Made by a program: the position numbers and the translations under genes. The notes under the pieces were generated by a model that made no database searches, was not told the DNA's origin, and worked only from the letters and a program-made list of their open reading frames with translations. From assembly GCA_020342235.1 (NCBI GenBank), contig CP073212.1, forward strand, positions 992,001 through 1,056,000: 64,000 bases of DNA, in the 5' to 3' direction. The stretch is from Saccharomycopsis phalli. Its lineage: Eukaryota > Ascomycota > Saccharomycetes > Ascoideales > Saccharomycopsidaceae. Positions 14,498 through 50,028 of the stretch are shown here, piece by piece. Position 1 is the stretch's first letter; each line of letters opens with the position of its first letter.

Positions 14498-15481
14498 ATG
14501 AACACTTTGGCCATCTTTCACATTCTTTTAGCCATGCTCTTTATGGAGCTCGGCCTTGCATCTCCGGTCGATGTTGCCCTTGTCGCTCGGGACACTGACA
14601 TCGAAAAATTGCTTAATTCTGGGGGTATGACAGGTAAAAATGCTCCGTATGTCAGACGGAAAAAGAAAGGTCCGTATAATTGTCTCAATGAGTATACCCG
14701 AAACGTGGTTCTTGCATACACATATCTGCCAAGATTCGAAAATATCTTTATTCAAGGATTAGGAAAGTCTCCATATGAGACGCTTTTTATTCTGTCAGCA
14801 CTATTTCCCCACCGAAACTTGAAGAAGTTGTTTCAGCCACAATCTACAGTATGGGATGCTGGCTGGATCAAGACGTTTTGGGAAGATCCTGTGAAAACTC
14901 CAGAGGAGGAGACTGTTCGCCATATGGATGATTTTACATCATTGGGAATAGAATGCTATGACACAGAAGGCATTTGGGAGAATAATAATACGTACATGAA
15001 GTTGCTCGGTTTAGTGGGAACAATGACCAATAAACAGAAGAAGAAATTTGAGGACTTATCTGTTGAAGGAGAAAAGGACGGGATTCGGAGACAAGGTGCC
15101 ACTGAATACATGTCAGCCATTAATAACCTCTTTTTAGTCGACGGACATCTTCGTGACGAAGTTCGATTCCAAGAGGCGTTTAAATTTGGCAATGTTTACA
15201 GCAAGGAAGACCTTAATAATCGTTTGAAAACCTTTAAAAATGCAGAAATTGTTGGAAAAATTACTGAAGAGAACAATATGCGTTTTTGTAAGGTTGATCA
15301 GGTGTTGGTTCATTACAGCCTCCAAGAGTTTGGTCCAATCATGAAGAAGGGACTTACTCTCAAGGACCGGGCGGCTCCAGACAATGTGCGATTAAATAAT
15401 GCGTGTATAGCCACTCTTGGGTCGTTGGATGACATGGATTACTGTTTCCCAAACAGGTATGGAGAATGCAACAGAGCTTGA
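14498..15481 (+). CDS. Secreted protein of unknown family, 327 aa
   Basis: The N-terminus MNTLAIFHILLAMLFMELGL followed by ASP is a strong signal peptide with cleavage near residue 22. A basic site (RRKKK, about residues 53-57) follows after about 30 residues and could be a processing site. The rest is soluble with no membrane segment, contains about six Cys spread over the chain (NCLNEY, IECYD, RFCKV, NACIA, DYCFP, GECNRA) and has several N-x-T/S sites. The spread of Cys fits disulfides in an extracellular protein. I do not recognise the family. It lies alone among LINE and LTR remains, a setting typical of fast-evolving accessory genes. The frame is intact. Confidence 0.75.
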   Translation: MNTLAIFHILLAMLFMELGLASPVDVALVARDTDIEKLLNSGGMTGKNAPYVRRKKKGPYNCLNEYTRNVVLAYTYLPRFENIFIQGLGKSPYETLFILSALFPHRNLKKLFQPQSTVWDAGWIKTFWEDPVKTPEEETVRHMDDFTSLGIECYDTEGIWENNNTYMKLLGLVGTMTNKQKKKFEDLSVEGEKDGIRRQGATEYMSAINNLFLVDGHLRDEVRFQEAFKFGNVYSKEDLNNRLKTFKNAEIVGKITEENNMRFCKVDQVLVHYSLQEFGPIMKKGLTLKDRAAPDNVRLNNACIATLGSLDDMDYCFPNRYGECNRA

Positions 15482-33424: not shown

Positions 33425-33560
33425 TCTCTTTTATTTTGTATCTAGCTACATAGTGTCTCCGAAACTATGGTTATTCAACGAATATACTTTCACTCAGGAA
33501 ATTCACGAGACAGCATTGCTGTTGAAGAAAGTCCTTTGTCGCCAAGTCTGACCGCTGAAT
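33425..33560 (-). mobile_element. LINE-B 3' UTR relic
   Basis: The minus-strand 3' end of LINE-B is recognised from TTTTGTATTTAGCTA, CACTCAGGAA and CAGCATTGCTGTTGAAGAAA. It is short and without a reading frame. Confidence 0.7.
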
Positions 33561-34384: not shown

Positions 34385-34680
34385 TACACAATCTCAAATA
34401 ATGTGAATTGCCAAAGCTGATCAAATTGAAGTTTTTAATCCCAGGCTGATCGAGGGTTGTAAAGTGTATTCACCAACAAATGCCTCTGGATTTTCCCAAA
34501 AAGTGCATTTGTCAAACCGCTGTTTCTGGAGACAATATAGCTAAATACAAAAATTAATAACAACATTTTTATTACTATTAATTCAGTCACTTGACCAAAC
34601 CACCGAAGATCTCATACATCAGAGATAGTCTCCACCGAGTCTTTTCCAGCAAGCACTTCAGAGAATATCCAAAAAATGCA

Positions 34681-35142
34681 TCATACTACCGAGAAGGCCT
34701 CTTCACTAATAATTTCAATGACAAGGCTACTGTTAATCAATTCCAAGATAACTGATTCACTGAAACACCCACGGATATTTACATATGGTGAACTTGCACT
34801 TGAAGCCACGCCGCCATATGTTTTTGAAGTTTTTCTATACAAGAACTTATTGAGTCCTGTAACATTGATATTTTTCATGCTCTTCTCTTGCTGTTTGTTT
34901 AAATAATTGACAATGGTTTGCAACTGTATATTGGAGACTTTCGAAACAAACCTGATGTCGTATAGAGCCACCAAATGTGATGACATATTAGACTGGTCCG
35001 TTTTCTGCTTGATGAATTTTTCGTCTTTAGGTGATGGTGGTTCTTTATACGGTTTAAGCGGACTGCCCAGGCTGTTCATAAATGGGAGATTGACTGCCTG
35101 GATACCAAAAATAAAGACAAAGAATAAGAATAAAAATCTCAT
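34681..35142 (-). CDS. Secreted paralogue A (signal-peptide family, 153 aa)
   Basis: Residues 1-16 (MRFLFLFFVFIFGIQA) form a signal peptide with cleavage after IQA. A Pro-rich segment (GSPLKPYKEPPSP, 26-38) follows. The core runs from YDIRFV (61-66) through a helix ending NYLNKQQEKSMKN (79-91) to TYGGV (108-112), then VNIRGCF with the single Cys at 126 and a helix/strand VILELINSSLVIEI. The layout of strand, helix, a Gly-rich turn, then xxGxF, a helix and VxxI is that of I9 inhibitors and subtilase prodomains. This is inference, not a database match. Its closest relative is the copy at 49132. The 5' flank is nearly identical in all family members. Confidence 0.83.
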   Translation of the reverse strand: MRFLFLFFVFIFGIQAVNLPFMNSLGSPLKPYKEPPSPKDEKFIKQKTDQSNMSSHLVALYDIRFVSKVSNIQLQTIVNYLNKQQEKSMKNINVTGLNKFLYRKTSKTYGGVASSASSPYVNIRGCFSESVILELINSSLVIEIISEEAFSVV

Positions 35143-35707
35143 GATGGGTTTATGATTTTAGAATGAAATTCGGCTATTTTAATATTTTCAACTGATGCCT
35201 TGCCATGCTGAAGCGTGACGTAGAACTGATGCGGCATTCAAAATGCGCAGGGCTTTGTACAAAAGCCTTGTAATATACACGTTGATGAAACTTTTAAAAA
35301 GTATAGATAAATAGATTGGAGGTAGAAGAGAGAACGGCACACCAGATTTACAATGGACTTTGAGGAGATCCACTGGCCTGCCCATTGTGTCAGACTTACG
35401 GTGCCTTTTATTCATAATACTAAAATGAAAACTATGAAAGGGGATAATTTTCTGTTATGTAAAGTCAGAGAATTGATCATTCCTCCTCACAGAGGCACTT
35501 ACAGACCCCAATACGCAGTTCATTAACTTGATTGACGAGTGGAAGAAGCCAAACGGATGGCTCGTTGCTCAATTATTTGGCAATGATTGAAATGCAAAGA
35601 TGTAGACAAATCCCCTTCAATATACATGATTTCCAGTATATAAGCCAATGATCTTGGCCCGAATTTTATCGCGCATTGATGAATTACTAGATTCTGCATT
35701 TGTCAAC

Positions 35708-36049
35708 TGTCGTGGTTAACTAACCACTGCAGAATAGGTCCAGTATTCAAGGAGGAGTTCGGAGTAGCTTAACGAACTCAGCCACAGAATACAGTAGCAC
35801 GTCCGCCAATCAATGGTAACCACCATCTGATTAAAGGACAACAACCTCTCAGGAGGATCGGCGTTCTCTATAAGAAGGCCGACATTTCGCTGCAAACATA
35901 ACGATCACAAGACCAATTCAGCTGGATATCTATATCTAGCACAACCCATTCCAGTTATCCAAATCCTAAAGGAACAAAACAAACAATTAGGTAGTTTATA
36001 GGTTGTTGTAATTCTATGTCTAATCAGGGTACACCTATAAACTACGACA
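35708..36049 (+). mobile_element. Solo LTR, family B, copy 3
   Basis: The element runs from TGTCGTGG to CTACGACA, 342 bp, with duplication TCAAC at 35703-35707 and 36050-36054. The right arm has one TCAAC (as GTTGA, 48567-48571) and no element at the same place. Fossil, relatively recent. Confidence 0.93.
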
Positions 36050-36219
36050 TCAACCCACCGTTTCCGGAGGCAATAGAGTCAAATACAAAAATTAATAACA
36101 TCATTTTTATTACTATTAATTCAGTCACTTGACCAAACCACCAAAAATCTCGTACATCAGAGATAGTCTCCATCGAGTCTTTTTCCAGCAAGCACTTCAG
36201 AGAATATCTAAAAAATGTA

Positions 36220-36684
36220 TCATTTCCGTAGTAAGGCGTTATGACAAAGAACATCAGTGACAATGCTACTGTCAATCAACTCCTGGACAACTTGTTCAGT
36301 AAAACACCCTCTGATATCAAAAACTCGTGGAAATTCAATTTTGTACACTCCGCCATATTTTTTTGAGGTTATGTCTTTAAAGACCTTTTTGACCCCTTCA
36401 TTATTGAAATTTTTCATGTTTATTTCTTGTTGTCGGTTTAAATAACTGATAATGCGGTCAATCTCATCTTGGTTGACTCCTGGCACAAACCTGGCGCCGT
36501 ACACACCCGCCAGAATGTATTCAATAGAAGACCGGCGTATTTTTTCGTTCATAATTTCTTGTTCATATGATGATGGTGGTTGTTGATAGGGTTCAAGCGG
36601 ACTGGATTGGATCGTCTTCCTAAATGGGAGATTGACTGCCTGGATGCCAAAAATAAAGACAAAGAATAAGAATAAGAATCTCAT
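36220..36684 (-). CDS. Secreted paralogue B (154 aa)
   Basis: It has the same signal peptide as paralogue A, then QSSPLEPYQQPPSS. The core is GARFVPGV, a helix to YLNRQQEINMKN, KKYGGVYKI, DIRGCF (Cys127) and VVQELIDSSIVTDV, with a second Cys at 147 that paralogue D shares and A, C and E lack. Mature length is about 138 aa. It has no transmembrane segment or GPI signal, so it should be released. Function is unknown, with an I9-like fold proposed. The ATG lies in a block AATCATAAACCCATCATG shared by all five genes. The frame is intact. Confidence 0.83.
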   Translation of the reverse strand: MRFLFLFFVFIFGIQAVNLPFRKTIQSSPLEPYQQPPSSYEQEIMNEKIRRSSIEYILAGVYGARFVPGVNQDEIDRIISYLNRQQEINMKNFNNEGVKKVFKDITSKKYGGVYKIEFPRVFDIRGCFTEQVVQELIDSSIVTDVLCHNALLRK

Positions 36685-37178
36685 GATGGGTTTATGATTT
36701 TAGAATGAAATTGAGCCATTTTAATACTTTTAACTTGTGCGTTGCCGTGAAGTAGAGATGATGCGGCATCCAAAAATTCAACGGCTTAAAACAAATTCCC
36801 CGCAGTATACACTTTAATGGAATTTTTAATAAAATGAAACTAAATATATTGAAGGTAGTGTGAAAGGCATAACAGATTATAAATGACGTGGTTTCAAGTC
36901 TTGATGCATAGGCGCTACTAATTAGATTATTACGTGAAAAGTATCTATAGTCAGATCTTTTCATGACCATTGATTGTAGAATGTTTTATTATTTGTATGA
37001 TACAATGAATACTTTGGGCTTTACAAAATTGCAAAATAGACACAATGTATCAGATATACAAATGTACCAAATATGTCAATACTGTGCCTAATAAATGCTT
37101 GCCTATTAATAGAATTGACCAGGTGCCATCTACAACATGCATCCATGGAAAGGAGTAGTGCCGTATTAAAGTGCCGAG

Positions 37179-37200
37179 ATTAGACTAGTACTAGTCTAAT
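37179..37200. repeat. Perfect 22-bp palindrome in the left arm
   Basis: The half-site ATTAGACTAGT is followed by its exact complement. The same palindrome occurs at 46584-46605 in the right arm, next to a family A LTR. Confidence 0.9.
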
Positions 37201-37330
37201 TGCTACAGAAGTAATAATGATGATATTTATTTTTGTATTTAGCTATATATTGTCTCCGGCATTACGGTTGTTCGACAGATATATTTTCACTCAGGAACGT
37301 TCTAGGGTAGCATTGCTGTTGAAGCAACCC

Positions 37331-37757
37331 TTTTACATGACCTCCGATGTCCAGAGCTCTTAGAAGCTCGAATTCTATCGAGCATTGATGACATACCAGA
37401 TTCCACTCATGGCATACGCAATACGCTTGAAAAAGTATTTGCCGACCAAAAATCAGTCCACAAATTCATTAAGTTTTACCAGAACGTGTTGGAACATGAT
37501 TCCTCCAACACATGATGAGGTCACATTCGACAATAAGGGTGAACAGGCTTCTTACACAATCACCACAAGCATTAGGTACCAACAATAGGATTGCTCCCAC
37601 TATAGTTTTTAATTCCAAGCAACCAAATGAGGGTTGACAAAGGGTTTTCTTCAACAGCAATGCTGCCTCAGGATGTTCCTGAGTGAAAATATATCTGTCG
37701 AACAACCGTAATGCCGGAGACAATATATAGCTAAATACAAAAATAAATATTATTATT
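37331..37757 (+). mobile_element. LINE-B 3' end with ORF2 C-terminus
   Basis: The plus-strand frame reads ...ARILSSIDDIPDSTHGIRNT, then SVHKFIKFYQNVLEHDSSNT and stop. It is followed by a UTR of about 240 bp that ends in AGCTAAATACAAAAATAAAT plus ATT repeats. It is 5'-truncated and the best-preserved LINE-B 3' end in the window. Confidence 0.82.
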
Positions 37758-38351
37758 ATTAAGCAACCCTTTATGAGCCCTCATACGGCTACTTGAGAAT
37801 AAAAGCTTTGATTTTAGCAGTTTTATCGATGCATGGTGCTTTTAGTGGTTGTTTGACAAACATGGTAATGCCGTTGGATTATAATAGTAAAATGATGACT
37901 ATAAAAGGGGTCACGTTACTTATGGTAAACGGGTTTTAGGGATCATGACTTGATCATTACTCCTCACAGAGGTGTTGACAGCCCCCAATTCGCAGTTTAA
38001 TATTTCAGTTACTCAGTGGAATAAGCCACATGGTAAGATTCTGCAATCAATCTTGGTGACAAGCAAATAGGCTTTTACACAACCACTACAAGAACCATGT
38101 ATGGAGAAAACTGTAAAAATAAAAGCTTTTACTCTCAAGTAGCCGCATGAGGGCTCACAAAGGGTTGCTTCAACAGCAATACTGCCTCGCAATTTTCCTG
38201 AGACGATATAGCTAAATACAAAGATTAATAACATCATTTTTATTACTATTAATTCAGTCACTTGTCCAAACCACCGAAAATCTCGTACATCAGAGATAGT
38301 CACCACCGGGTCTTTTCCAGCAAGCACTTCAGAGAATATCCAAAATATCCA

Positions 38352-38816
38352 TCATTCCTGTCCAAAAGCTTTATCTTGGGACTCAATGTCAATGACAAGG
38401 CTACTGCGAATCAACTTCTGGAGAACTGGTTTAGTAAAACACCCCCATATATCTACATATTGTAAACGCCTAGTTTCAAACACTCCACCATATTCACTGC
38501 CGGTTTTACTTTTAAAGTAACTCTTGAGTTGCTGATTTTTGTTATTTTTCATGCTCTTTTCTTGCTTTTTGTTCAAATAGTTGACAATGTTGTCCAATTG
38601 TTTATCGGTGATCTTCAGCATAAACCTGACTTGAAATACAGCCGGATTGAATAAATCAATACCAGACCGCGTCGTTTTTAGATCCACCATTTCTTGATCT
38701 CCAGATGATAGTGGTTTTTTGTAAGGGACAAGCGGGCTGACCCGTTTCTTTATTAATGGAAGATTGACTGCCTGGATACCAAAAATAAAGACAAAGAATA
38801 AGAATAAAAATTTCAT
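38352..38816 (-). CDS. Secreted paralogue C (154 aa), between the two arms
   Basis: The signal peptide is MKFLFLFFVFIFGIQA, followed by VSPLVPYKKPLSS. The core is VRFMLKI, a helix to NYLNKKQEKSMKN, EYGGVF, VDIWGCF with the only Cys, and VLQKLIRSSLVIDIE. It is the most diverged member, and its basic residues are more frequent than in the others. Its flanks keep the family pattern: a conserved promoter block on the 5' side, and on the 3' side a segment ending in a LINE-B end (about 38200-38350). It lies inside the inverted arms without a mirrored partner. The frame is intact and the function unknown. Confidence 0.82.
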   Translation of the reverse strand: MKFLFLFFVFIFGIQAVNLPLIKKRVSPLVPYKKPLSSGDQEMVDLKTTRSGIDLFNPAVFQVRFMLKITDKQLDNIVNYLNKKQEKSMKNNKNQQLKSYFKSKTGSEYGGVFETRRLQYVDIWGCFTKPVLQKLIRSSLVIDIESQDKAFGQE

Positions 38817-39815
38817 GATGGGTTTATGATTTTAGAATGAAATTCGGCTATTTCAATATTTTCAACTGATGCCTTGCCATGCTGAAGCGTGACGTATAAC
38901 TGAGGCGGCATTCAAAAAGTACAGGGCTTTGTACAAAAGCCTTGTAATATACACGTTGATGAAGCTTTTAAAAAATAACTAGATTGGTGGCAGCGAAAGG
39001 CACAAATATTATGAATGGTGTGGTTTCAAGTCTTGATGTATTGGTGCCATGTGCTAATTAGATTATTACGTAGAAAGTGTCCAGTCTGGCAGATTTCTTC
39101 TTGGCTATTTGTGAGTAAATAATGATTTGCGAGTTTTCAATGTACCTATTAGGAAATTGGCAGTCTTTGATAGGTGCCATGTACAATATGCGTCCATGGA
39201 AAGAATTGGTGCCATGAAGCACATCAATTTATCTCAAGTAGGGAAAAGGCCTCAGGCAACCAAAGCGTGGAATAAATGGACACCTCTAATAGTGACTTGC
39301 TTTCTAGTCACCAAGGCATGGACGGAAAATCAGCGCCATGTCGCTCACAGCAAAAGATATATTTGCAAAGTAACCATGACGTCGGATAAAATATAGCTAA
39401 ATACAAAACCTCAAGTTGTGGTAATGACCAGAATGAAGCCATGGAATTGAGGTATACTGGATTTTCCAATGGAGTCAGACATGCGAGTCTTTTATTCATA
39501 GCAGATGACTATATAATATGTTTATTTACATGCTATACTAGGCTCCCCAGAGGGTGAGATGACTTGGAAGAGCTTTGGGTCTTGCTGCAGGGACTACCTG
39601 CCCGGCGGCCCTTGTGACGATGAAAATCGGCAATCAAACATGGCTCAAGTAGCATGTTGGTAATAAAGGTGGTGAAATTAAGGTTGATCGCAGTTGATTG
39701 GGTATTGATGTGGGATTTGTTATGGACACCAGGATGCTGTGAATAGACAATGGCAGTGTATAACCAGCCGGAGAGAATGTATATGTAAATACAAGAATGA
39801 ATATAAGACTGGGTC
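38817..39815. other. Promoter block of paralogue C, then spacer with LINE-A-like scrap
   Basis: 38817-39110 matches the 5' flanks of the other family members. About 39515-39570 holds a LINE-A-like end (GCTATACTAGGCTCCCCAG). No gene is seen in between. Confidence 0.5.
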
Positions 39816-40065
39816 TGTAATATAGTAACTAAGATACATGTTGATAAGATAGTTAGAATATATTTGTTTGACCTATTTGTGGGGCGAGATTAGCTATATA
39901 AGTGGTGACGGAGTCAGGAAAGGAGAGCCTTAAGCGTACGGGACTGCTGCCTTAGTATTGCCTCGACTGGTTAAAGAGATGAGTTTAGGGTAATTATCTA
40001 ATACTGATTGTGGGAGTTTGAATCTTGTATCAGAAAGATTTAAGGTAGGTACGGACTTTATTACA
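39816..40065 (+). mobile_element. Solo LTR, family C, copy 1
   Basis: The element runs from TGTAATATAGTAACTA to GACTTTATTACA, 250 bp, with a perfect 5-bp duplication GGGTC at 39811-39815 and 40066-40070. It contains GCTATATAAG. Fossil with clean ends. Confidence 0.92.
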
Positions 40066-40639
40066 GGGTCTTTGGAGACTAGCTAATGAAAATGATATTA
40101 AAGCAGTCAGATAAAAGACAGATAACAGTCAGGCAACAACCAGACAATAGCCAGACAATAGCCAGACAATAGCCAGACTAACATTTTATTTGACAGTTTT
40201 ATGATTTATATTATTATGGGTATGCAGAGCCAGGTTGATCTGGAGAATATGTAAAAGAGAATCACATCAGACGTAGTCTCAAAGTATAATCTAGCCAAGA
40301 CCATTTTATTTTATAGAAAGTATATGAATGGAATTTCCATTGCACATTTGCTATTTGCAACTGGTATTCAGTTGCTAGTGTTGTAGTTGACGATGCAACC
40401 ATCATCCCAGTGGACTGGTATTAAACTACAATAGAAATGTCATTAATTGCATGTACTTTAAAACATGGCCATTATTGTTTGATAATTGGTGCCGTATAAA
40501 GAGGTATTAAACCACACAACATTATAACCCCTCACCACACCATACTACACCATTACCATTGGCATCATTGGCACCATTGGCATCCAATTCACACCATTGG
40601 TGTCCAATTCACACCATTGCTCCATCACCATTGCTCCAC
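40066..40639. other. SMC5 3' spacer with a 12-bp repeat
   Basis: 40135-40180 contains four copies of CAGACAATAGC-type units. The rest is AT-rich with nothing recognised. Confidence 0.5.
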
Positions 40640-43600
40640 CTACTCACTGGCCCACACACTCTGTGGAACCACGTGGTTCGCCAAGATACAGTGCACCGCC
40701 ATCTTCTCATGATAATACAAACCAGTCAACAACTTGGGCGTAATCAAAAAATACTGGCTGCACACCCCCATGTGCTCCTGGCACGCGCTTTCCACCATGT
40801 GCCGATGCACGATGCGCTCGTTCCTCGGGTCCATGCCCTGGTTGATTTCGTCCACCACACGAAACGGCGACGTCGCAAGCCCCTGGAGCGCAAGCATAAA
40901 AAATATCGTCGACACTGCGCGCTCTCCACCTGACTGCACGTACGGATCCAATACTCGGAGTTCCGCGTCGTCACGGAACTTGACTAGAAGCTCGAGCCGC
41001 CAGTGTTCGAGCCGCGGCTGCTTATTAAGCCGGACCTCGCCTGCCGACGCGACCGCGGCAAACCGGCTCGAGAAATTCCCCGACAAGCGCGCCACAAGCG
41101 CGTCCAAGTCGCGTTCCCATGGCGCCCGGACTCCGGCCAAGTCCGCGCGCAACCCGGCCAACTGCCCCTCCACCAGCGGGAGCCGGGCTTCGAGCCCGGC
41201 GATGCTTTCCTCAATCGCGCGTAGCTTGCTGATTGACGACACAGTCGTATGGTCGAGTCCGGCCATGGTCTGCCGGAGCGCGTCCAACTTGGCGCGCACG
41301 TCGCGCTCGGTCAACGAGCCGTCGGCTTGGTACTGCTCCGCCAACGCGCCGAGCTCGGCGCGTAAGTCGGCCGAGTATTGTTTGGTGAGCTCTTTGAGGC
41401 GCTTCACCTCGTCGCTACGCCGGACCGCGTCGTACTGTTCCTGCGCCGCCTGGAGCTGGGCGGCGACGCGCGCAACCGCGCCCGCAGACTCCGCGACTAG
41501 CCGCTCAAGACCCGCGCAGGTGTTCTGGGCGTCGACGCACGCAACCTGCAGCCGCGCGACCGTGCCGCCGAGCTCCACAATCTCCGCCGCAGGGCCGCCC
41601 AAGTCCACGAGACACTGCAACACCGCGCGCTGGAGCTCGAGCTGCTTGCGCGCGATTTTCTGAAGCGCGCCGCTGACGTCGCGCTCGGCCTCCTGCCGGA
41701 GAAGCGCGCAACCCTGCCGCTTGCGAAGGAGCTTGGCGTCCAACCCCGCGCGCTGCGCCTGGAGCTGGTGCATCCCGCTGAGCGACGCGCTCTGGAACTC
41801 GTACTCGCCCGCAAGGGTGTCGAGCTCGCGCGACACCGCGGCGACTTGCTGCTCACATTCCTCGAGCTCCGCGGTCCGCTCGCGGAGCGCGTCCTGCTGC
41901 TGCGCGAGCTCCTGCGCCGCCGCCTGGTGCGCGCTGCGCCGGTCAAACACCGGCGTCTTGGGCGGGTACACCACCTGGCTCCGGGTGACAACCTGGCGCG
42001 ACCCGTACTGCGACGCGCTGAGACTGTACACCACGTCCCCGGCAATGTACTTGGCGAACCACGGGCGGCCCGTCGCAGGGTCCCGCTGCTGAAGCCGCTG
42101 CATCTGCGCGGCACTCAACTCGCCCAAGCTCACAGGCGTCTCGTACAATACCGTGTCATACAACATCGTGCGCACCGCCTCCGGCCCGCTCACAAAGTCA
42201 ATGAGGTACCCGTCAAAGCCAAACTCGCGGAGCTGCTCCGCGGTATACTTCCGCGCCAGCCGCTCGCCAGGGTACCGGAACCCGACGTTGATGCCCTGGA
42301 ACGCGCCCCGGACCGCCTCCTGGTACACTGCGCGCGACTCTGCAGTCAACGCGACCTTGGTGTTGGCGTCGACTAGAAACTCGAGGTACTTCCCGTAGCG
42401 GTCGTCGGTGACGCCGACGCACAACACCGGCGGCTCAAACACCCGCCCCTGGAGCGCGGGCGTCGCCCGGAGCCGCTCGACCGCGCGGTAGCATGTACCG
42501 TACACTGGGTGCCCACGCATGCGCGCAAGTACCCCGATGCGGTCCTCGCTGGCCAACTGCCCCTGGAGCCGCCGCGCCGCGGCCTCGGCCGCGGCCTTCT
42601 GCTGCTGCGCCGCCCGCTGCCGGTCGCGCGCCGCCGCAAGCCGCAGCTTGACCTCCCGGATCTTCTCGCGCGTCGCCTGCTTGTCGGCGGCCGCCGCCGC
42701 AACGCGCGCGTCGTCAGGTGACTCGAGCGCCTGCAACTCGGCCTCAAGCAGCGCGACCTCGGCCTCAAGCAGCGCCAAGTCCTGGCGCTTGCGCGCGCCG
42801 CGTGTCTCCAACTGGCGCTTCTCGCGCGCCACCTGCTCGACGCGCTGCTCGACCGCGGTCTTGGCGCTGCTCTTGTCGTTATACTCGCGTTGAGCCGCCC
42901 GGAGCGCGGCCTGCAGCTCGGCGAGCCGCTGGGCCAAGTCGTCACAGACGCGTTGCGCGGCCGCAAGCTCGGCGGCTAGCGGCGCGCGGCTCGCGTCGAG
43001 CGCGTCGGCGAGTTTGCGCCACTTGTCGCGTCGCTTCTTGTACTCAGCCGCGGCACGGCGCCGGTCCAGCACGATCGCGTACGGGAGCAACTTCTCGTGA
43101 TGCTCGCACTGGCGCTTTGTCTCCTGGTACTTGATATACTTGTCGGCGGCCTGCTGCAACTCTTGCTGCTGGGCTCGCAACCCGCTGAGGGTGGTCTGCC
43201 CCTGCGCGAGTTCCTGCGCAAGGTCGTGCGCGGCTTTCTCGAGCTCGATGAGCCGCCGGTGTGCAGCTAGCAACCCGCCCGGCCCGGCGCGCTCGGTCTC
43301 TAGCAACAACAACTCGGGCTTCATCGCGGCAAACGCACTCACCTTGTCCTGCGGGAGAAAACAGCACAAGTTGCTCAACTGGATCTGCAACTCCTCCAAA
43401 AGCGCGCGGAGCCGCCGCTCGTCGCCCGGCGCGTCGTCAAAGAACCAGCGCGTCTTCTCCTTGACCCGGCTCTGACGCGTCATTTCGCGCCGCACGCGCA
43501 CCACACCCCCGCGATACTTGAGCGTGGTCTCAATCTCCGCGTAGTCCGTGCCTTGCTTGATGAACTCCGCACTGTACTTTTGGCGTCCAAGCAACTCGGG

Positions 43601-43903
43601 CTTTCCGCCGAGTCCAAGACATATTGCACACACAAACGTCGATTTGCCCGTGCCGTTTGGCCCAATGATCATGTTCAACGTCGGCGAAAGCTCAAACTGA
43701 GTCTCAGAGTACGTGACAAAGTTCTTGACCCGGATCCGTACAATACTCCCGTCGTTGAACTGCGCCAAGTTTCCCGCGTCATTCGCGCCCAGAAGCTGCT
43801 CCACTCGGGTCCGTTTCGCGCCCCGTAGCTCGCCGTCTATATTCACGTTGCCATTTTCCTTCTTGACCCGCCTTTTCACGCTTCGCGACGCGCTTTTGCT
43901 CAT
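40640..43903 (-). CDS. SMC5: SMC5 ATPase of the SMC5/6 complex
   Basis: The protein is 1087 aa. The N-terminal ATPase half has Walker A GPNGTGKS (residues 81-88) and CFLPQDKVSAF, typical of Smc5. Two long coiled-coil arms flank a hinge (about 450-620, with FRYPGERLARKYTAEQLREF). The C-terminal half has the ABC signature YVQSGGERAVST and Walker B RVVDEINQGMDPRNER. With Smc6 and Nse proteins it forms the nuclear complex that extrudes DNA, carries SUMO ligase activity and resolves recombination intermediates. The start is the first ATG, and a CACGTG lies 38 bp upstream. The gene looks much richer in G+C than its surroundings, mostly at third positions, so the antisense strand is full of long open frames. 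Confidence 0.96.
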   Translation of the reverse strand: MSKSASRSVKRRVKKENGNVNIDGELRGAKRTRVEQLLGANDAGNLAQFNDGSIVRIRVKNFVTYSETQFELSPTLNMIIGPNGTGKSTFVCAICLGLGGKPELLGRQKYSAEFIKQGTDYAEIETTLKYRGGVVRVRREMTRQSRVKEKTRWFFDDAPGDERRLRALLEELQIQLSNLCCFLPQDKVSAFAAMKPELLLLETERAGPGGLLAAHRRLIELEKAAHDLAQELAQGQTTLSGLRAQQQELQQAADKYIKYQETKRQCEHHEKLLPYAIVLDRRRAAAEYKKRRDKWRKLADALDASRAPLAAELAAAQRVCDDLAQRLAELQAALRAAQREYNDKSSAKTAVEQRVEQVAREKRQLETRGARKRQDLALLEAEVALLEAELQALESPDDARVAAAAADKQATREKIREVKLRLAAARDRQRAAQQQKAAAEAAARRLQGQLASEDRIGVLARMRGHPVYGTCYRAVERLRATPALQGRVFEPPVLCVGVTDDRYGKYLEFLVDANTKVALTAESRAVYQEAVRGAFQGINVGFRYPGERLARKYTAEQLREFGFDGYLIDFVSGPEAVRTMLYDTVLYETPVSLGELSAAQMQRLQQRDPATGRPWFAKYIAGDVVYSLSASQYGSRQVVTRSQVVYPPKTPVFDRRSAHQAAAQELAQQQDALRERTAELEECEQQVAAVSRELDTLAGEYEFQSASLSGMHQLQAQRAGLDAKLLRKRQGCALLRQEAERDVSGALQKIARKQLELQRAVLQCLVDLGGPAAEIVELGGTVARLQVACVDAQNTCAGLERLVAESAGAVARVAAQLQAAQEQYDAVRRSDEVKRLKELTKQYSADLRAELGALAEQYQADGSLTERDVRAKLDALRQTMAGLDHTTVSSISKLRAIEESIAGLEARLPLVEGQLAGLRADLAGVRAPWERDLDALVARLSGNFSSRFAAVASAGEVRLNKQPRLEHWRLELLVKFRDDAELRVLDPYVQSGGERAVSTIFFMLALQGLATSPFRVVDEINQGMDPRNERIVHRHMVESACQEHMGVCSQYFLITPKLLTGLYYHEKMAVHCILANHVVPQSVWASE

Positions 43904-43965
43904 GAGTATTGGATTGCAGGCCGCAAATGATTTATGTGGTCACGTGAGAGGCGCGTGATGCCAGG

Positions 43966-44085
43966 CATTGATTTTCTGCATTGATTTTTTGCATTGATTT
44001 TTTGCATTGATTTTTTGCACTGATTTTTTGCACTGATTTTTTGCATTGATTTTTTGCACTAATTTTTTGCATTGATTTTTCATCT
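43966..44085. repeat. 13-bp minisatellite TTGCATTGATTTT upstream of SMC5
   Basis: Nine units of CATTGATTTTTTG, or CACTGATTTTTTG with T/C changes, start about 60 bp upstream of the SMC5 start codon. Confidence 0.9.
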
Positions 44086-44261
44086 CCTATTTTCATTCAT
44101 CCATCTCATTTTAATCAAAAATTCCTCAAGATTTTCATCTTGAATCGTGCATCTCACAACCACTCCACATGACCAAAGACTCATTGTACTGAAAAAAAAA
44201 TCCAATCGTCACAAGATATTATCACATTTCTTTACCTGCAATTGCCCAGTAATAATACCAT

Positions 44262-44400
44262 GTTTATTTCTTCTATAGCTATACTAGGCTCTCCAGAGGG
44301 TGAGATTGACATTTCACCGTCTAAAAAGACGGCGCCGCTAATTCTGCAGCCAAGAGAAAACTATTTGAATGGCGATAAAAACTTTCGACTTAATCTTTAG
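44262..44400 (-). mobile_element. LINE-A-like 3' end
   Basis: The plus strand shows TTTATTTCTTCTATAGCTAT followed by ACTAGGCTCTCCAGAGGG and AAAAACTTTCGACT. This is the 3' end of LINE-A with several differences, so a diverged copy. Confidence 0.65.
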
Positions 44401-44894
44401 AAAACTGTTAAAGAGATGACTAAAAAGGAGCTATGCAGTCAATTGCCAAATGTCATGGAAATCCATACAGTTGGTTTGCAACTACAATTGCCTTGTAGAC
44501 TATGGACTGAGGCAGAAGACAAGTAATCCTTGCTCAATAATCGGAATTGCTGTAGATCCAATTGTATTGTAATAAAAGAGACTTTGCTTCCAACTTATTG
44601 TCGTTTACAGCTTCTTTCTAACCACGCCTTTGGCACAAATGCATGGACTAGCCAAGTCCATTTCCTCTTTATAATACAGTCATTCCCATGGATTTGTCCA
44701 TTTTAGAGCGTCTTTGTTCCTTCTGACTTGTCTCTTCTACTTGTTTGCGGCCTTTTGTCTCAAGGTGTAATAAAAAGAGTTATATTTCTCCTGAAGCTAC
44801 ACTAATCCATTGTATTGCATGCTCTTGGCTACGCATCTTTTCCACTTCTTTCCGGCAATTGACTCGTCTTTATCAATTGACTTGTTTTTAGCAA

Positions 44895-46240
44895 TTGACT
44901 CGCCTTTATCAATTGTCAATTAGGGAACCTGTAACGACATTGAGCTTACATTTCAACTGTGGTTACAGCAATGCCACCAATTGGGTCAAGAGAATTTCAC
45001 AAGCTTTGACCATGGTCCGAAACTACAGTACATACGATTCTTCCCGAATCGCAGACGGTTACAGAACTGTGAATCCAGCCTTCACCTACCGGAAGGAGGA
45101 AACAAACGAGGTCAAGTTATTAGGCATCACCCTTAGTTCAAGGCTCAGCTTCAGGAGCCATCTAAAACAAACATTGTCCAAGATGCGCCGTAATGCTAAA
45201 CAAATTGGAATTTAAGCAGAATGACAAGAAAAATCATGGGACGCATCACGCTAAATTTGTTTAAAACGTGTGCAGTTCTAATCATATCTTACGGAATCGA
45301 GGTGTTCTATAACAGCATGACAAAACCCAGTGAGTCAAGTCCTTGGCAATAATAAAAGCCATGAGATGGTTCATGAACACGTCAAGCCAAAGCCCGGTCC
45401 GCTCCAGTTGTTCCAAACTACCACGATCAATGGAAGCACGAGAATCACAATTCCTAAACGCCCTCTTATCCAACATATGTTAAAGGCAACAGCTTTTCAT
45501 ACCCCAGATATTAGAACGTTTAATGCCGCCGCTTGAATACTTGAAAAACTGGCAGGTTATTCACTAGAGGAAAACCGAATCAAAGAAGATCTACTACCAA
45601 TCCAGAAACTACAGCGATCCCGCATCCAGATGTTCAATGGCCTCAAAACAAGCAACCAAAGAGTGGCTGGAAATGGTCACTTCTACCAGTGACTCACTTC
45701 CAAACCACTACAGGAACGCACGCAAAATCAGCACCAAGCCGATCAAGGTACATCGAGACAGAACCAAGCTCCTCCTCACGGCCTCACGGAAGCGCTTGCA
45801 GGCCCCAAGGCAATCTTCAGTTTGACATCACAACTACTTAGTGGAACGAGCTTCACAGATGGCTCGTTGCTTAAACTATTTGGCAACTATGACCCAAAGT
45901 GCAAAAGATGTGAGACTCACACCCCCGTTATTATACATGACCTGCAATGCCCAGAATGTGTTGGAACATGATTCCTCCAACACATGATGAGATTTAACGG
46001 ACACATTTGATAACAAGGGTGACCAGGTTTCTTACAAAATCAATAAAAGCACTAAGAACCGACAGTATGACTGCTCCCATTGAAGTTTTTAATCACAAGC
46101 GACCAAGTGAAGGTTGACAAAGGGTTTTCTTCAGCAGCAACGCTGCCTTAGGATGTTCCAGAGTGAAAATATATCTGTTGAACAACCGTAATGCCAGAGA
46201 CAATATATAGCTAAATACAAAAATAAATATTATCATTATT
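44895..46240 (+). mobile_element. LINE-B relic: RT thumb to 3' tail
   Basis: Successive plus-strand frames read NEVKLLGITLSSRLSFRSHL, LFKTCAVLIISYGIEVFYNS, ATKEWLEMVTSTSDSLPNHY and LLKLFGNYDPKCKRCETHTP. The 3' UTR then ends at about 46240 with AAATACAAAAATAAATATT. Several frame changes show that it is dead. It aligns with the minus-strand relic at 16-18.7 kb and with 50029-50168. Confidence 0.8.
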
Positions 46241-46255
46241 ACTTCTGTAGCAATT

Positions 46256-46581
46256 TGTTGAGGTTGAACACTACAAATAAGTCACCGATAACGGAGATCT
46301 GTTCTCCGCTAGAATGAACTCATGATACTGCACAACATGCAGTTAATGCAGTTGTAAAGGAATGTGAAGGTCATGGGTGAAGATGCTTATGAGGGGATAT
46401 TTCTACTATAAAAGGAGAGATGTTCCCGTAGTGCAGAGCAGAAAAGAATATCAATTCAATCATCCCTACCGTTCCGATTATTCAATTATAAAAGGAACAA
46501 AACTCATCTATAATTAAATAAATATCTGAGCATAAGTTTGTAACGATGTCACACTCTCAGAAGAGGAATTTGGCATCGACA
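46256..46581 (+). mobile_element. Solo LTR, family A, copy 3
   Basis: The element runs from TGTTGAGG to CATCGACA, 326 bp, with 5-bp duplication CAATT at 46251-46255 and 46582-46586. The left arm keeps the unoccupied site (AATTG at 37198-37202). Fossil. Confidence 0.93.
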
Positions 46582-46859
46582 CAATTAGACTAGTACTAGT
46601 CTAATCTCGGCACTTTACTACGGCACTACTTCTTTCTATGGATGCATGTTGTAGATGGCACCTGTCAATTCTATTAGTAGGCAAGCATTTATTAAGTTAA
46701 GTATATTTAGTTCTGTATTTAGCTATATATTGTCTCCGGAAACACGGTGATTCGACAGATATATTTTCACTCAGGAACATCCTGAGGCAGCATTCTATTG
46801 AAGAAAACCCTTTATAACCCTAAACGGTTATATGGGCTGAAAAACTTCAATGGGAGCAG

Positions 46860-46985
46860 TGTTGTTAGTGGTTTAACGTGACTGGCTATTGGTTATGCGA
46901 GAAGCCTGGCCATCCTTCGGCTAAATGCCGGCGCTATCCGGCCGCTGAATCTCGTGACGATGGGCGCACGACTCGTCGGGGTCGT
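46860..46985 (+). mobile_element. Retrotransposon gag zinc-knuckle remnant
   Basis: A short stretch reads like a nucleocapsid knuckle (CEKPGHPSAKC) with basic residues after it. It lies inside the insert that separates the right arm from its left counterpart. It is a fossil scrap of an LTR element, and the family cannot be told. Confidence 0.45.
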
Positions 46986-47074
46986 TCATTGCTCGTTTGC
47001 GAGACTTCCTTGTATTGCCCTTCTGAGGCGTAGTGTGCTCTTTCTGGAGACTTTCTTGAGTATTGGGGCGGTTT

Positions 47075-47158
47075 GGTGGGGCTCGAACCCGGTAACTACC
47101 TCATGATGCGCCCTCCATAAGGCATGAGGTGTTTTCCATTCGGCCAAACCTCCTGCCC
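47075..47158 (-). tRNA. tRNA-like sequence with A- and B-box, probably not functional
   Basis: On the minus strand, TGGCCGAATGG resembles a pol III A box and GGTTCGAGCCC a B box. An acceptor-like pairing GGAGGTT with AACCGCC has one mismatch, and ACCTCATG pairs with CATGAGGT in the anticodon region. The D stem and T stem do not pair well and no convincing anticodon loop forms. It could be a tRNA pseudogene or the head of a SINE. Confidence 0.35.
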
Positions 47159-47578
47159 CCAAGCATTTATTAGGCACAGTATCGACATATTTGGTACATT
47201 TGTATATCTGATACATTGTGTCTATTTCGCAATGTTGTAAAGCCCAAAGTATTCATTGTATAATACAAATAATAAAACATTCTACAGTCAATGGTCATGA
47301 AAATATCTGACTATAGATACTTTTCACGTAATAATTTAATTAGTAGCGCCGCCCATGCATCAAGACTTGAAACCACGTCATTTATAATCTGTTGCACCTT
47401 TCGCACTACCTTCAATTTATTTATTTTCATTTTATTAAAAGTTTCATTAAAGTGTATACTGCAAGGCTGGTATTTTAAGCCGTTGTTTTTTGGATGCCGC
47501 ATCAGTTCTACTTCACGGCAACGCACAAGTTAAAAGTATTAAAATGGCCCAATTTCATTCTAAAATCATAAACCCATC

Positions 47579-48049
47579 ATGAGATTCTTATTTTTATTCT
47601 TTGTCTTTATTTTTGGCATCCAGGCAGTCTTTAACCCATTTAAGCTGACGGAGACGATTTTGCCCAGTCCGCTTGAACCCTATGAACAACCACCATCACC
47701 AAATGACCAACTGATGATAGACCAAAAAATACGTCAGTCCCTTATTGATTTCAATCTGGCCGGTGTATATGACGTTACGCTTGTGCCAGGAATCACCAAA
47801 GATGAGTTGGAAACCATTACCAGTTATTTAAACCAACAACAAAAAATAAACATGGAAAATTTCAATATTGAAGGGATCAAAAATATCTTTAAAAGCAGAA
47901 CCACAAGAAAATATGGCGGAGTATTTGAAACTTCAAATAACGAAGTTCATGGTATCAGAGGGTGTTTCGTTGCACCAGTTGTCCAGGAGTTGATTGGCAG
48001 TAGCATTGTCACTGCTGTTTATTGTAAAGACCCCTTTCTACAGAATTGA
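47579..48049 (+). CDS. Secreted paralogue D (156 aa)
   Basis: The signal peptide MRFLFLFFVFIFGIQA is identical to that of A and B, followed by ILPSPLEPYEQPPSP. The core is DVTLVPGI, a helix to SYLNQQQKINMEN, RKYGGVFET, GIRGCF (Cys129) and VVQELIGSSIVTAVY, with a second Cys at 149. The two-Cys pattern, the VPG turn and NMENFN/NMKNFN show it is the partner of paralogue B. The upstream 250 bp mirrors the flank of B. The 3' flank is cut after about 70 bp by an insert. Intact frame; function unknown, I9-like fold proposed. Confidence 0.83.
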   Translation: MRFLFLFFVFIFGIQAVFNPFKLTETILPSPLEPYEQPPSPNDQLMIDQKIRQSLIDFNLAGVYDVTLVPGITKDELETITSYLNQQQKINMENFNIEGIKNIFKSRTTRKYGGVFETSNNEVHGIRGCFVAPVVQELIGSSIVTAVYCKDPFLQN

Positions 48050-49131
48050 TGCATTTTTTAGATATTCTCTAAAGTACTTGCTGGAAAGACTCGGTGGAGA
48101 CTATCTTTGTGTCAGAATTTATAAATATAGGAGTAGTTAATGACTATGAAGTTCTTAATATAAACTCTATATATTTTCACTCAGGAACATCCTGAGGCAG
48201 CATTGCTGTTGAAGAAACCCCTTTGTCAACCTCCTTTAAGATTGAATGATTGAATCTAAACCAAAGGTCCTTAAATCGATAGATGCCCTAGTTAGTTTAC
48301 TACCTAGCCTTATATAGTCATTCCAGTGGTCATACTATTTTACTACAAAGAGTATTCACTCCTTGTGTCGTCATAGCATGTCCATTGTCCTTGATACACA
48401 CATGAACACCACCAATGCAATGCTGTCTGCAATATCAGAACATTTGGTGATCACGACGTCTTTGATGTACGAGATTTTCGGTGGCTTGGTCAAGTGACTG
48501 AATGAATAGTAATAAAAATGGTTTTATTTATTTTGTATTTAGCTATATTGTCTCCGGGAACGGTGGGTTGACAAATGCAGAATCTAGTAATCATCAATGA
48601 ACGACAAAACTTTGGGCCAAGATCTTTGGCTTATATACTGGAAATCATGTATATTGGAGAGAGCTTGTCTACATCTTTGCATTTCAGTCATTGCCAAATA
48701 ATTGAGCAGCGAGCCATCCGTGAAGCTTTTTACACTCGTCAATCAAGTTAATGAACTGCGTATTGGGGTCCATAAGTGCCTCTGTGAGGAGAAATGATCA
48801 ATTCTCTGACTTTACATAACAGAAAATTATCCCCTTTTATAGTTTTCATTTTAGTATTATGAATAAAAGGCACCGTAAGTCTGACACAATGGGCAGGCCA
48901 GTGGATCTCCTCAAAGTCCATTGTAAATCTGGTGTGCCGTTATCTCTTCTACCTCCAATCTATTTATCTATACTTTTTAAAAGTTTCATCAACGTGTATA
49001 TTACAAGGCTTTTGTACAAAGCCCTGTGCATTTTGAATGCCGCCTCAGTTCTACGTCACGCTTCAGCATGGCAAGGCATCGGTTGAAAGTATTAAAATGG
49101 ACGAATTTCATTCTAAAATCATAAACCCATC

Positions 49132-49593
49132 ATGAAATTCTTATTCTTATTCTTTGTCTTTTTTTTTGGCATCCAGGCAGTCAATCTCCCATTTATGAAC
49201 AGCCTGGGCAGTCCGCTTGAACCCTATGAACAACCACCATCACCTAAAGACAAAGAATTTATCAAGCAAAAAACGGACCAGTCTAATGTGTCATCACATT
49301 TGATAGCTCTATACAACGTCAAGTTTGTTTCGGATGTCACCAGTAAGCAGTTGAAAACCATTGCCGATTATTTAAACAAACAGCAAGAGAAGAGCATGGA
49401 AAATGTCAATTATAAAGGACTCGATAAGTTCTTGCGTGGTAAATCACTCAACACATATGGCGGCGTGGCTTCAACTGCAAGTTCACCATATGTAAATATC
49501 AGTGGGTGTTTTAGTAAATCAGTTATCTTGGAATTGATTAACAGTCGCCTTGTCATTGAAATTATTAGTCAAGAGGCCTTTTTGGTGGTATGA
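49132..49593 (+). CDS. Secreted paralogue E (153 aa)
   Basis: The signal peptide is MKFLFLFFVFFFGIQA. The mature part starts VNLPFMNSLGSPLEPYEQPP, as in paralogue A, and shares KQKTDQSNxSSHLxALY, LNKQQEKSMxN, TYGGVAS, SSPYVNI.GCF with a single Cys, and VILELINS.LVIEII with it. A and E are therefore mirror partners. About 300 bp of upstream sequence, including a 75-codon open frame, is nearly identical between the two. Its 3' flank lacks about 30 bp present downstream of A. The frame is intact. Substitutions between A and E are scattered in the mature part, while the signal peptide and flank are held. Confidence 0.83.
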   Translation: MKFLFLFFVFFFGIQAVNLPFMNSLGSPLEPYEQPPSPKDKEFIKQKTDQSNVSSHLIALYNVKFVSDVTSKQLKTIADYLNKQQEKSMENVNYKGLDKFLRGKSLNTYGGVASTASSPYVNISGCFSKSVILELINSRLVIEIISQEAFLVV

Positions 49594-50028
49594 TGCATTT
49601 TTTAGATATTCTCTGAAGTGCTTGCTGGAAAAGACTCGGTAGTTTGGTCAAGTGACTAAATTAATAGTAATAAAAATGATATTATTAATCTTTGTATTTA
49701 GCTATATTGTCTCCAGAAACGGTGGTTTGACATATGCAGAATCTGGTAATTCATCAATGCGCGATAAAATTTGGACCAAGATCTTTGGCTTATATACTGG
49801 AAATCATGTATATTGGAGAGAACGTGTCTACATCTTTGCATTTCAGTCATTGCCAAATAATTGAGCAACGAGCCATCCGCGAAGCTTTTTCCACTCGTCA
49901 ATCGAGTTTATAAACTGAGTGCTGGGGTATGCAAATGCCTTTGTTGGGAGGAATGATCAATTCTCTGACCATTCACAACAGAAAATGATCCCTTTTATAG
50001 TTTTCATTTTACTATTATGAACAGACCC

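What the first reader, a model, noticed from the sequence alone, without database searches (positions are those of the whole stretch)
34515..49740. A mirrored inverted duplication carries five paralogous secreted-protein genes around SMC5
Seen directly: three minus-strand genes (34681, 36220, 38352) and two plus-strand genes (47579, 49132) encode one family with near-identical signal peptides. A pairs with E (KQKTDQSN..SSHL, TYGGVAS, one Cys) and B pairs with D (VPG turn, two Cys). The order is therefore A-B-C | D-E, a palindrome about 15 kb across. Intergenic DNA matches too, for example 35188-35415 with 48859-49086 and 36692-37200 with 46584-47560. Large inverted repeats next to an essential gene and active retroelements are unstable, so this looks like an expanding locus. 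I know of no described family with these features.
Basis: partly seen in the sequence, partly recalled or inferred. Interest (0 to 1): 0.82.

Follow-up and report, generated by a model that had tools for sequence, protein, structure and literature searches.

The report
Free-standing protease propeptides in a yeast
Five mirrored yeast genes belong to a fast-changing family of secreted proteins that look like the removable 'safety cap' of subtilisin-type proteases, in a genome that also carries many such proteases lacking their own cap, so cap and enzyme may work as separate partners.

Summary
Five related secreted-protein genes flank SMC5; A pairs with E and B with D in an inverted duplication of a ~3-kb two-gene block (92% and 86% identity), not a continuous 15-kb palindrome; C has no partner. 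The family can be placed: the genome's full-length secreted subtilases carry a homologous propeptide, and AlphaFold2 models of A and D match best the propeptide of Aspergillus fumigatus alkaline protease. These are stand-alone secreted subtilase propeptides: 16 intact genes plus one pseudogene, one clade. The genome has 46 S8 matches; of 22 read within 25 kb of contig ends, 19 have a signal peptide joined directly to the mature protease, without propeptide. Sixteen of these, analysed together, keep the catalytic residues and evolve under purifying selection. The stand-alone propeptides evolve under strong diversifying selection (omega 1.3; about 3 at 38% of sites), enriched in the C-terminal tail, the part that reaches the protease active site in known inhibitors. 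Best reading: secreted trans-acting subtilase inhibitors, perhaps folding partners, in a protease-propeptide system spread over separate genes. Activity and target are untested. CTG is probably read as serine here.

The parts
34681..35142 (-). Gene A: stand-alone secreted subtilase-propeptide-like protein, 153 aa
   Evidence: ORF; AF2 model; fold match; alignments
36220..36684 (-). Gene B: same family, 154 aa, two Cys, partner of D
38352..38816 (-). Gene C: same family, 154 aa, no partner in the right arm
47579..48049 (+). Gene D: same family, 156 aa, partner of B
   Evidence: AF2 model; fold match
49132..49593 (+). Gene E: same family, 153 aa, partner of A
34504..35707 (.). Left arm, A block of the inverted duplication (pairs with 48567-49738)
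   Evidence: 92.4% over ungapped columns
48567..49738 (.). Right arm, E block (pairs with 34504-35707)
36158..37202 (.). Left arm, B block (pairs with 47160-48109 and 46582-46694)
46582..48109 (.). Right arm, D block with ~0.47 kb of extra sequence
40640..43903 (-). SMC5 in the spacer between the arms; not part of the family
   Evidence: matches Smc5 chains of the PDB, best E 4e-145

Best explanation
Genes A-E are five of 17 loci (16 intact genes, one pseudogene) of one family of secreted stand-alone subtilase propeptides. Shown: signal peptide plus a domain homologous to the propeptide of the genome's full-length secreted subtilases, single origin, predicted I9-like fold, strong diversifying selection. 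Inferred: outside the cell, or in the secretory pathway, the domain docks by its beta-sheet on the subtilase catalytic domain and lays its C-terminal tail in the substrate cleft, so it inhibits the protease (slow, tight binding as for free propeptides) and may help it fold in trans. Most likely targets: secreted proteinase-K-like subtilases, first of all the genome's own subtelomeric set, which lacks covalent propeptides. Changes of the tail would retune which protease each paralogue fits.
Against: No inhibition or binding could be tested. Pfam Inhibitor_I9 does not reach the five proteins even at E 1, and a profile of 16 found no relevant PDB sequence, so the fold rests on homology to the full-length proteases plus AF2 with a five-sequence alignment; no Foldseek match fell below E 0.001 for either model. 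The two halves do not look like the products of one gene split: the stand-alones resemble L026/L032 most, while the propeptide-less proteases are sister to L061 (UFBoot 98). One propeptide-less copy (L072) has lost the catalytic Asp and Ser. The passage on tails also says that for cucumisin and PfSUB the tail contributes but is not essential. A shared 8-mer upstream of both classes lies at -25 in one and at scattered places in the other, so co-regulation is not shown. The propeptide-less proteases diversify less but not nil (2dlnL 28, 10% of sites at omega 2.4; two of five close pairs above 1, not significant), and a foreign target fits the strong diversification of the inhibitors as well. The codon models are my own implementation on fixed trees; gene conversion between paralogues could inflate them. 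A/E alone is not significant (omega 1.7, p 0.22), and two of the seven pairs are below 1.
Confidence: 0.62

Rival explanations
1. They are secreted inhibitors aimed at subtilases of other organisms (competitors, hosts, predators), not at the yeast's own; the arms race with foreign proteases drives the diversification.
For: Gene-wide omega above 1 with tail sites enriched, much weaker diversification in the genome's own propeptide-less proteases.
Against: The genome itself holds an unusually large matching set: 46 S8 matches, fragments and pseudogenes included, at least 19 without propeptide. The survey PMC5371821 (passages) gives 0-19 proteinase-K-like genes per species in 83 fungi, with Yarrowia (16) as the exception among yeasts. 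The propeptide-less proteases also have some selected sites, and 3 of 7 (L063 130, 170, 172) align near proteinase K 100 and 138-140, beside the substrate strands (aligned by eye, the role of those strands is recalled).
Confidence: 0.25
2. The propeptide fold was kept but the proteins took up another secreted role (adhesion, toxin or immunity factor, signal) and no longer bind proteases.
For: Long branch (1.42) between stand-alone and full-length propeptides, N-terminal helix with many selected sites (8 of 14), no Pfam I9 score.
Against: Selected sites are enriched at the tail, the protease-contacting part of known inhibitors (PMC10580911 passage), and the GGV motif is kept in 16 of 16 stand-alones.
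Confidence: 0.1
3. They are decayed relics: truncated protease genes drifting without function.
For: One of 17 loci is interrupted by a stop (L012); several S8 copies are fragments.
Against: 16 of 17 are intact, 151-171 aa, with conserved signal peptides; relics would drift to omega 1, not above it, with 16% of sites held at 0.08.
Confidence: 0.02
4. The mirrored arrangement is an assembly error.
For: Reads could not be examined.
Against: The arms differ by 8% and 14% and by ~0.47 kb; the three contig ends read are telomere-like arrays, so the assembly looks near complete.
Confidence: 0.01

Closest known systems
Subtilase propeptide domain (Inhibitor_I9, PF05922), e.g. A. fumigatus alkaline protease propeptide 8gkp/8gko
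   Same: Homologous to the propeptide part of the genome's full-length proteases; best fold match of both models.
   Different: Here a separate secreted gene with no protease attached, under diversifying selection, and without a score to the Pfam model. The models also show a helix before the domain (38-51 in A); whether known propeptides have one was not checked.
POIA1 (Pleurotus ostreatus proteinase A inhibitor 1) and yeast YIB2/Pbi2
   Different: Those are small (POIA1 chains 76-77 aa) and, as recalled, cytosolic without signal peptide; here 16 secreted paralogues of 151-171 aa.
Proteinase-K-like (S8A) secreted subtilases of fungi
   Same: Full-length and propeptide-less proteases of this genome match proteinase K, aqualysin and fungal alkaline proteases.
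   Different: Motifs around Asp and His deviate (D-x-A or D-x-V, often H-A-I-N, instead of DTG and HGTH), and at least 19 lack the propeptide.
Saccharomycopsis fibuligera subtilase and I9 expansion (PMC5106798, passages)
   Same: A yeast with many subtilases and I9 domains.
   Different: There most of the subtilase genes are said to contain the I9 domain themselves; its telomere repeat GGGTGGTGTAA differs from TGTGCGGA here.

Membership tests
Inhibitor_I9 / subtilase propeptide (PF05922) | Propeptide fold beta-alpha-beta-beta-alpha-beta | tested here: met
   Predicted only:
Inhibitor_I9 / subtilase propeptide (PF05922) | Homologous to the region N-terminal to an S8 domain | tested here: met
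Inhibitor_I9 / subtilase propeptide (PF05922) | Score above the Pfam gathering cut-off | tested here: not met
   No I9 match at E up to 1 for the five proteins; L026, L032 and L061, which have a propeptide, do not match it either. So I call it a homologue of propeptides that works like I9, outside the Pfam model
Inhibitor_I9 / subtilase propeptide (PF05922) | C-terminal tail that enters the substrate cleft | tested here: inconclusive
   A tail is present and hypervariable; no complex could be modelled
Stand-alone subtilase inhibitors (POIA1, YIB2) | Encoded without protease domain | tested here: met
   Frames of 157-179 aa, 16 of 17 intact
Stand-alone subtilase inhibitors (POIA1, YIB2) | Inhibits subtilisin or proteinase K/B | not testable with these tools
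   Needs an assay
Proteinase-K-like S8 subtilases (the supposed targets) | Asp/His/Asn/Ser catalytic residues | tested here: met
   31 of 33 sequences tabulated; L047 has Tyr for His, L055 is truncated. L072, read later, lacks Asp and Ser
Proteinase-K-like S8 subtilases (the supposed targets) | N-terminal I9 propeptide | tested here: not met
   Absent in 19 of 22 subtelomeric copies read; the other 3 (L055, L058, L074) have no readable N-terminus. Present in the 13 internal proteases read

The most novel reading that the evidence does not exclude
A natural split-zymogen system: a yeast has divided a secreted subtilase arsenal into propeptide-less enzymes near telomeres and separately encoded, fast-evolving propeptides inside the chromosomes, which fold and restrain the enzymes in trans, so that enzyme-propeptide matching works like a toxin-immunity code.
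Probability: 0.3. Interest if true: 0.88.

Novelty: new variant of a known kind. Interest (0 to 1): 0.74.

Why it matters
Subtilase propeptides are the textbook intramolecular chaperone, normally part of the same chain as the enzyme. A genome in which many secreted subtilases have lost it while a separate secreted propeptide family diversifies would make trans-acting propeptide function testable in nature, and would show how inhibitor specificity evolves at the tail. My keyword searches for such a system listed no paper that names one (open-licence papers only; I saw listings, and passages of four papers).

Tried and rejected
Protein database searches: gene A gave no hit among 12 candidates, the 16-member alignment none among 1429, propeptide-less L063 only two I9+S8 proteins at 30-31%. 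The collection seems to hold few fungi, so this says nothing on how widespread the family is. Profile against PDB sequences: one chance hit at E 0.86. Viral contigs, phage, plasmid and E. coli collections: not used.

Co-regulation: TTCATTCT occurs upstream of 9 of 16 stand-alone and 11 of 18 propeptide-less genes, 0 of 13 full-length and 0 of 15 other genes, but at a fixed -25 in a conserved leader in the first and scattered from -92 to -371 in the second; not taken as evidence.

Species: words for the telomere unit TGTGCGGA found only two unrelated papers; Hsp90 is nearest to yeast Hsc82/Hsp82 among solved structures. Not identified.

Genetic code: first analyses used CTG=Leu; the stand-alone and propeptide-less models and four full-length pairs were run with CTG=Ser, the stand-alones also without CTG columns, with the same outcome. 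One search also holds five propeptide-less pairs (omega 0.38, 0.49, 0.54, and 1.41 and 3.01, the last two not significant) and full-length pairs L029/L030 (propeptide 0.52) and L026/L032 (saturated), not repeated. AF2 models carry Leu at 1 (A) and 3 (D) CTG codons.

Trees: the 'support 26/31' printed for the two clades is a label displaced by re-rooting; the unrooted Newick in that call gives 100 for both splits. The tree used 16 propeptide-less sequences (L055 and L058 dropped as broken; L072, L073, L075 read later), 13 propeptide-bearing ones (two others not fetched) and 16 of 17 stand-alones (pseudogene dropped). The start of L032 was set by me to a later Met that opens a signal peptide; starts of propeptide-less genes were taken as the last Met before the Asp motif. 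In one search the pair L062/L064 failed and was dropped. In one search the outer 95 columns of the B-D global alignment (44%) are an alignment break over the extra sequence and were left out of the flank figures.

One search translated L063 with wrong ends; one search used corrected ones.
Full report
WHAT IS THERE. The window is C1:992001-1056000 of a 14.15-Mb, 8-contig genome of a budding yeast (Hsp90; Smc5). Five ORFs of 153-156 aa lie at the stated places: A, B, C on the minus strand, SMC5, then D and E on the plus strand. A/E (77% identical) and B/D (59%) are sister pairs. Inverted DNA similarity covers 34504-35707 / 48567-49738 and 36158-37202 / 46582-48109, far above shuffles (1636 against at most 31 bits in 40). 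So a two-gene block was duplicated in inverted orientation on the other side of SMC5; C is unpaired. By coordinates, part of the remaining inverted matches is a dispersed element at 37205-37770.

A CLUE IN THE ARMS. Within the arms the non-coding flanks are more alike than the mature coding parts: A-E 94-97% against 88%, B-D 90-96% against 78%, with the signal-peptide codons at 92% and 98%. Ordinary constraint gives the opposite.

THE PROTEASES. S8 gives 46 matches (lower bound by the tool's own note). Twenty-five lie within 25 kb of a contig end, on 12 of 16 ends; the three contig ends read are arrays of TGTGCGGA. Of the 25, 22 were read: 19 start with a signal peptide that runs straight into the mature protease (16, L073 and L075, L072), two (L058, L074) lack a start Met before the domain, and L055 is truncated and interrupted; three were not read and are short frames of 174-239 aa. 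The remaining 21 are further inside, L061 nearest at 39 kb; 13 read proteases of this clade have a propeptide, three are ordinary types (kexin-like L036, Prb1-like L037, and L038; names by my reading), two with frames of ~500 aa were not fetched and three are fragments or pseudogenes. Propeptide queries find nothing in 16 of the 19 propeptide-less loci plus L055 and L058 (best 22 bits, E 0.39). The 16 propeptide-less copies in the tree are one clade (UFBoot 100), sister to L061 (98). Catalytic residues are complete in 31 of 33 S8 sequences tabulated; L072 lacks Asp and Ser. The mature domain of 16 propeptide-less copies evolves at omega 0.42, so most are probably working enzymes.

SELECTION. 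On 16 stand-alone mature regions (138 codons, CTG=Ser) M0 omega is 1.32 (2dlnL 10.5 against 1) and M2a beats M1a by 131 (omega 3.0 at 38% of sites); with CTG=Leu M8 beats M7 by 126. Twelve data sets simulated under the fitted model without positive selection (CTG=Leu) gave at most 6.4. Without any CTG column the gain is 98. Signal peptide: omega 0.62, no significant selected class. Close pairs that I picked, uncorrected: L024/L025 4.6 (p 0.0003), B/D 2.5 (p 0.007), L015/L016 1.85 (p 0.07), A/E 1.7 (p 0.22), L019/L022 1.4 (p 0.27), L021/L023 0.89 and L017/L021 0.76 (not significant). In full-length proteases the same domain has omega 0.32, 0.35, 0.46 and 0.64 (the last p 0.19) in four pairs while their catalytic domains are at 0.83-1.00. 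Of 35 sites with posterior above 0.9 among 136, seven are in the nine tail residues 145-153 (Fisher p 0.001 against all others, 0.0002 against the rest of the core), and 8 of 14 in the N-terminal helix. In the propeptide-less proteases M2a beats M1a by 28 with 10% of sites at omega 2.4; 7 sites pass 0.9, and three of them align next to the substrate strands of proteinase K (alignment by eye, roles of the strands recalled).

HOW IT PROBABLY WORKS. Free subtilase propeptides are slow tight-binding inhibitors, and in YIB2 and POIA1 replacement of the six tail residues by those of the subtilisin BPN' propeptide raised potency; for cucumisin and PfSUB the tail helps but is not essential (PMC10580911, passages). 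A secreted propeptide with a hypervariable tail is what a specificity-tuned inhibitor would look like. The genome's own propeptide-less proteases are the obvious partners: they must fold without a covalent propeptide, and propeptides can act in trans in vitro (recalled). Steps shown: homology, predicted fold, secretion signal, selection, proteases without propeptide. Steps inferred: binding, inhibition, folding help, choice of target. Against a simple gene split: the two halves are nearest to different full-length genes, and the inhibitors diversify more than the proteases, so foreign proteases remain a fair alternative.

GENETIC CODE. SMC5 has nine CTG codons. Eight are aligned with Smc5 of the best PDB hit: they face Lys, Lys, Ile, Phe, Asp, Thr, Thr and Gln, the Ile, Phe and Asp in a poorly aligned coiled coil. 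The pattern search gave 11 tRNA-like places; ARAGORN on five of the loci found Leu(AAG) and Leu(TAA). Three of the 11 are a Ser-type tRNA whose loop I read as CA-CAG-A followed by an intron; ARAGORN does not call it by default and calls Thr(TGT) when introns are allowed. So CTG=Ser is probable, not proven. Paralogue columns with CTG are variable and do not decide.

NOVELTY. Stand-alone I9 inhibitors and subtilase expansions are known. A multigene, secreted, diversifying propeptide family beside a propeptide-less protease family was not listed in my searches, which cover open-licence papers only.

One search resolved L072, which raised the propeptide-less count from 18 to 19 of 22 and added one copy without catalytic Asp and Ser; the B-D identity is quoted (86%) instead of the broken global alignment.

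Noticed in passing
37205-37770; pieces near 33429-33540, 46119-46255, 46698-46860: Dispersed element with ~122-bp inverted arms; 40 other matches of ~0.38-0.44 kb reported (lower bound). By comparing coordinates, at least 16 of these 40 lie within 2 kb of an RVT_1 domain, often at ~1.5 kb, so it may be the end piece of a retroelement.
   Followed up: partly
40640-43903: The SMC5 region is 57-64% GC while the neighbouring 2-kb steps are 37-41%.
   Followed up: no
whole genome (L079, L082, L085; SMC5): CTG is probably read as serine; a Ser-type tRNA with an apparent CAG anticodon, a purine before it and an intron occurs in three copies.
   Followed up: partly
L069 1-323, L070 1-300, L071 11-308: Telomere-like repeat TGTGCGGA, not found in the paper library.
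   Followed up: partly
upstream of A-E and relatives (about -30 to -5): Conserved leader around TTCATTCTAAAATCATAAA; the exact TTCATTCT stands at -25 in 9 of 16 stand-alone genes.
   Followed up: partly
14498-15481: A 327-aa ORF that begins like a secreted protein and has no Pfam match at E 0.001.
   Followed up: no
L047/L029 (C1:690386-691543) and L072 (C2:2181281): Possible pseudoproteases: one full-length copy has Tyr for the catalytic His and its open frame lacks the signal peptide; one propeptide-less copy lacks Asp and Ser in an otherwise open frame.
   Followed up: partly
C3:1524142 (L025) and C3:1541316 (L024): A second pair of family members on opposite strands 17 kb apart, with the strongest pairwise selection signal (omega 4.6); whether the flanks are mirrored too was not tested.
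   Followed up: partly
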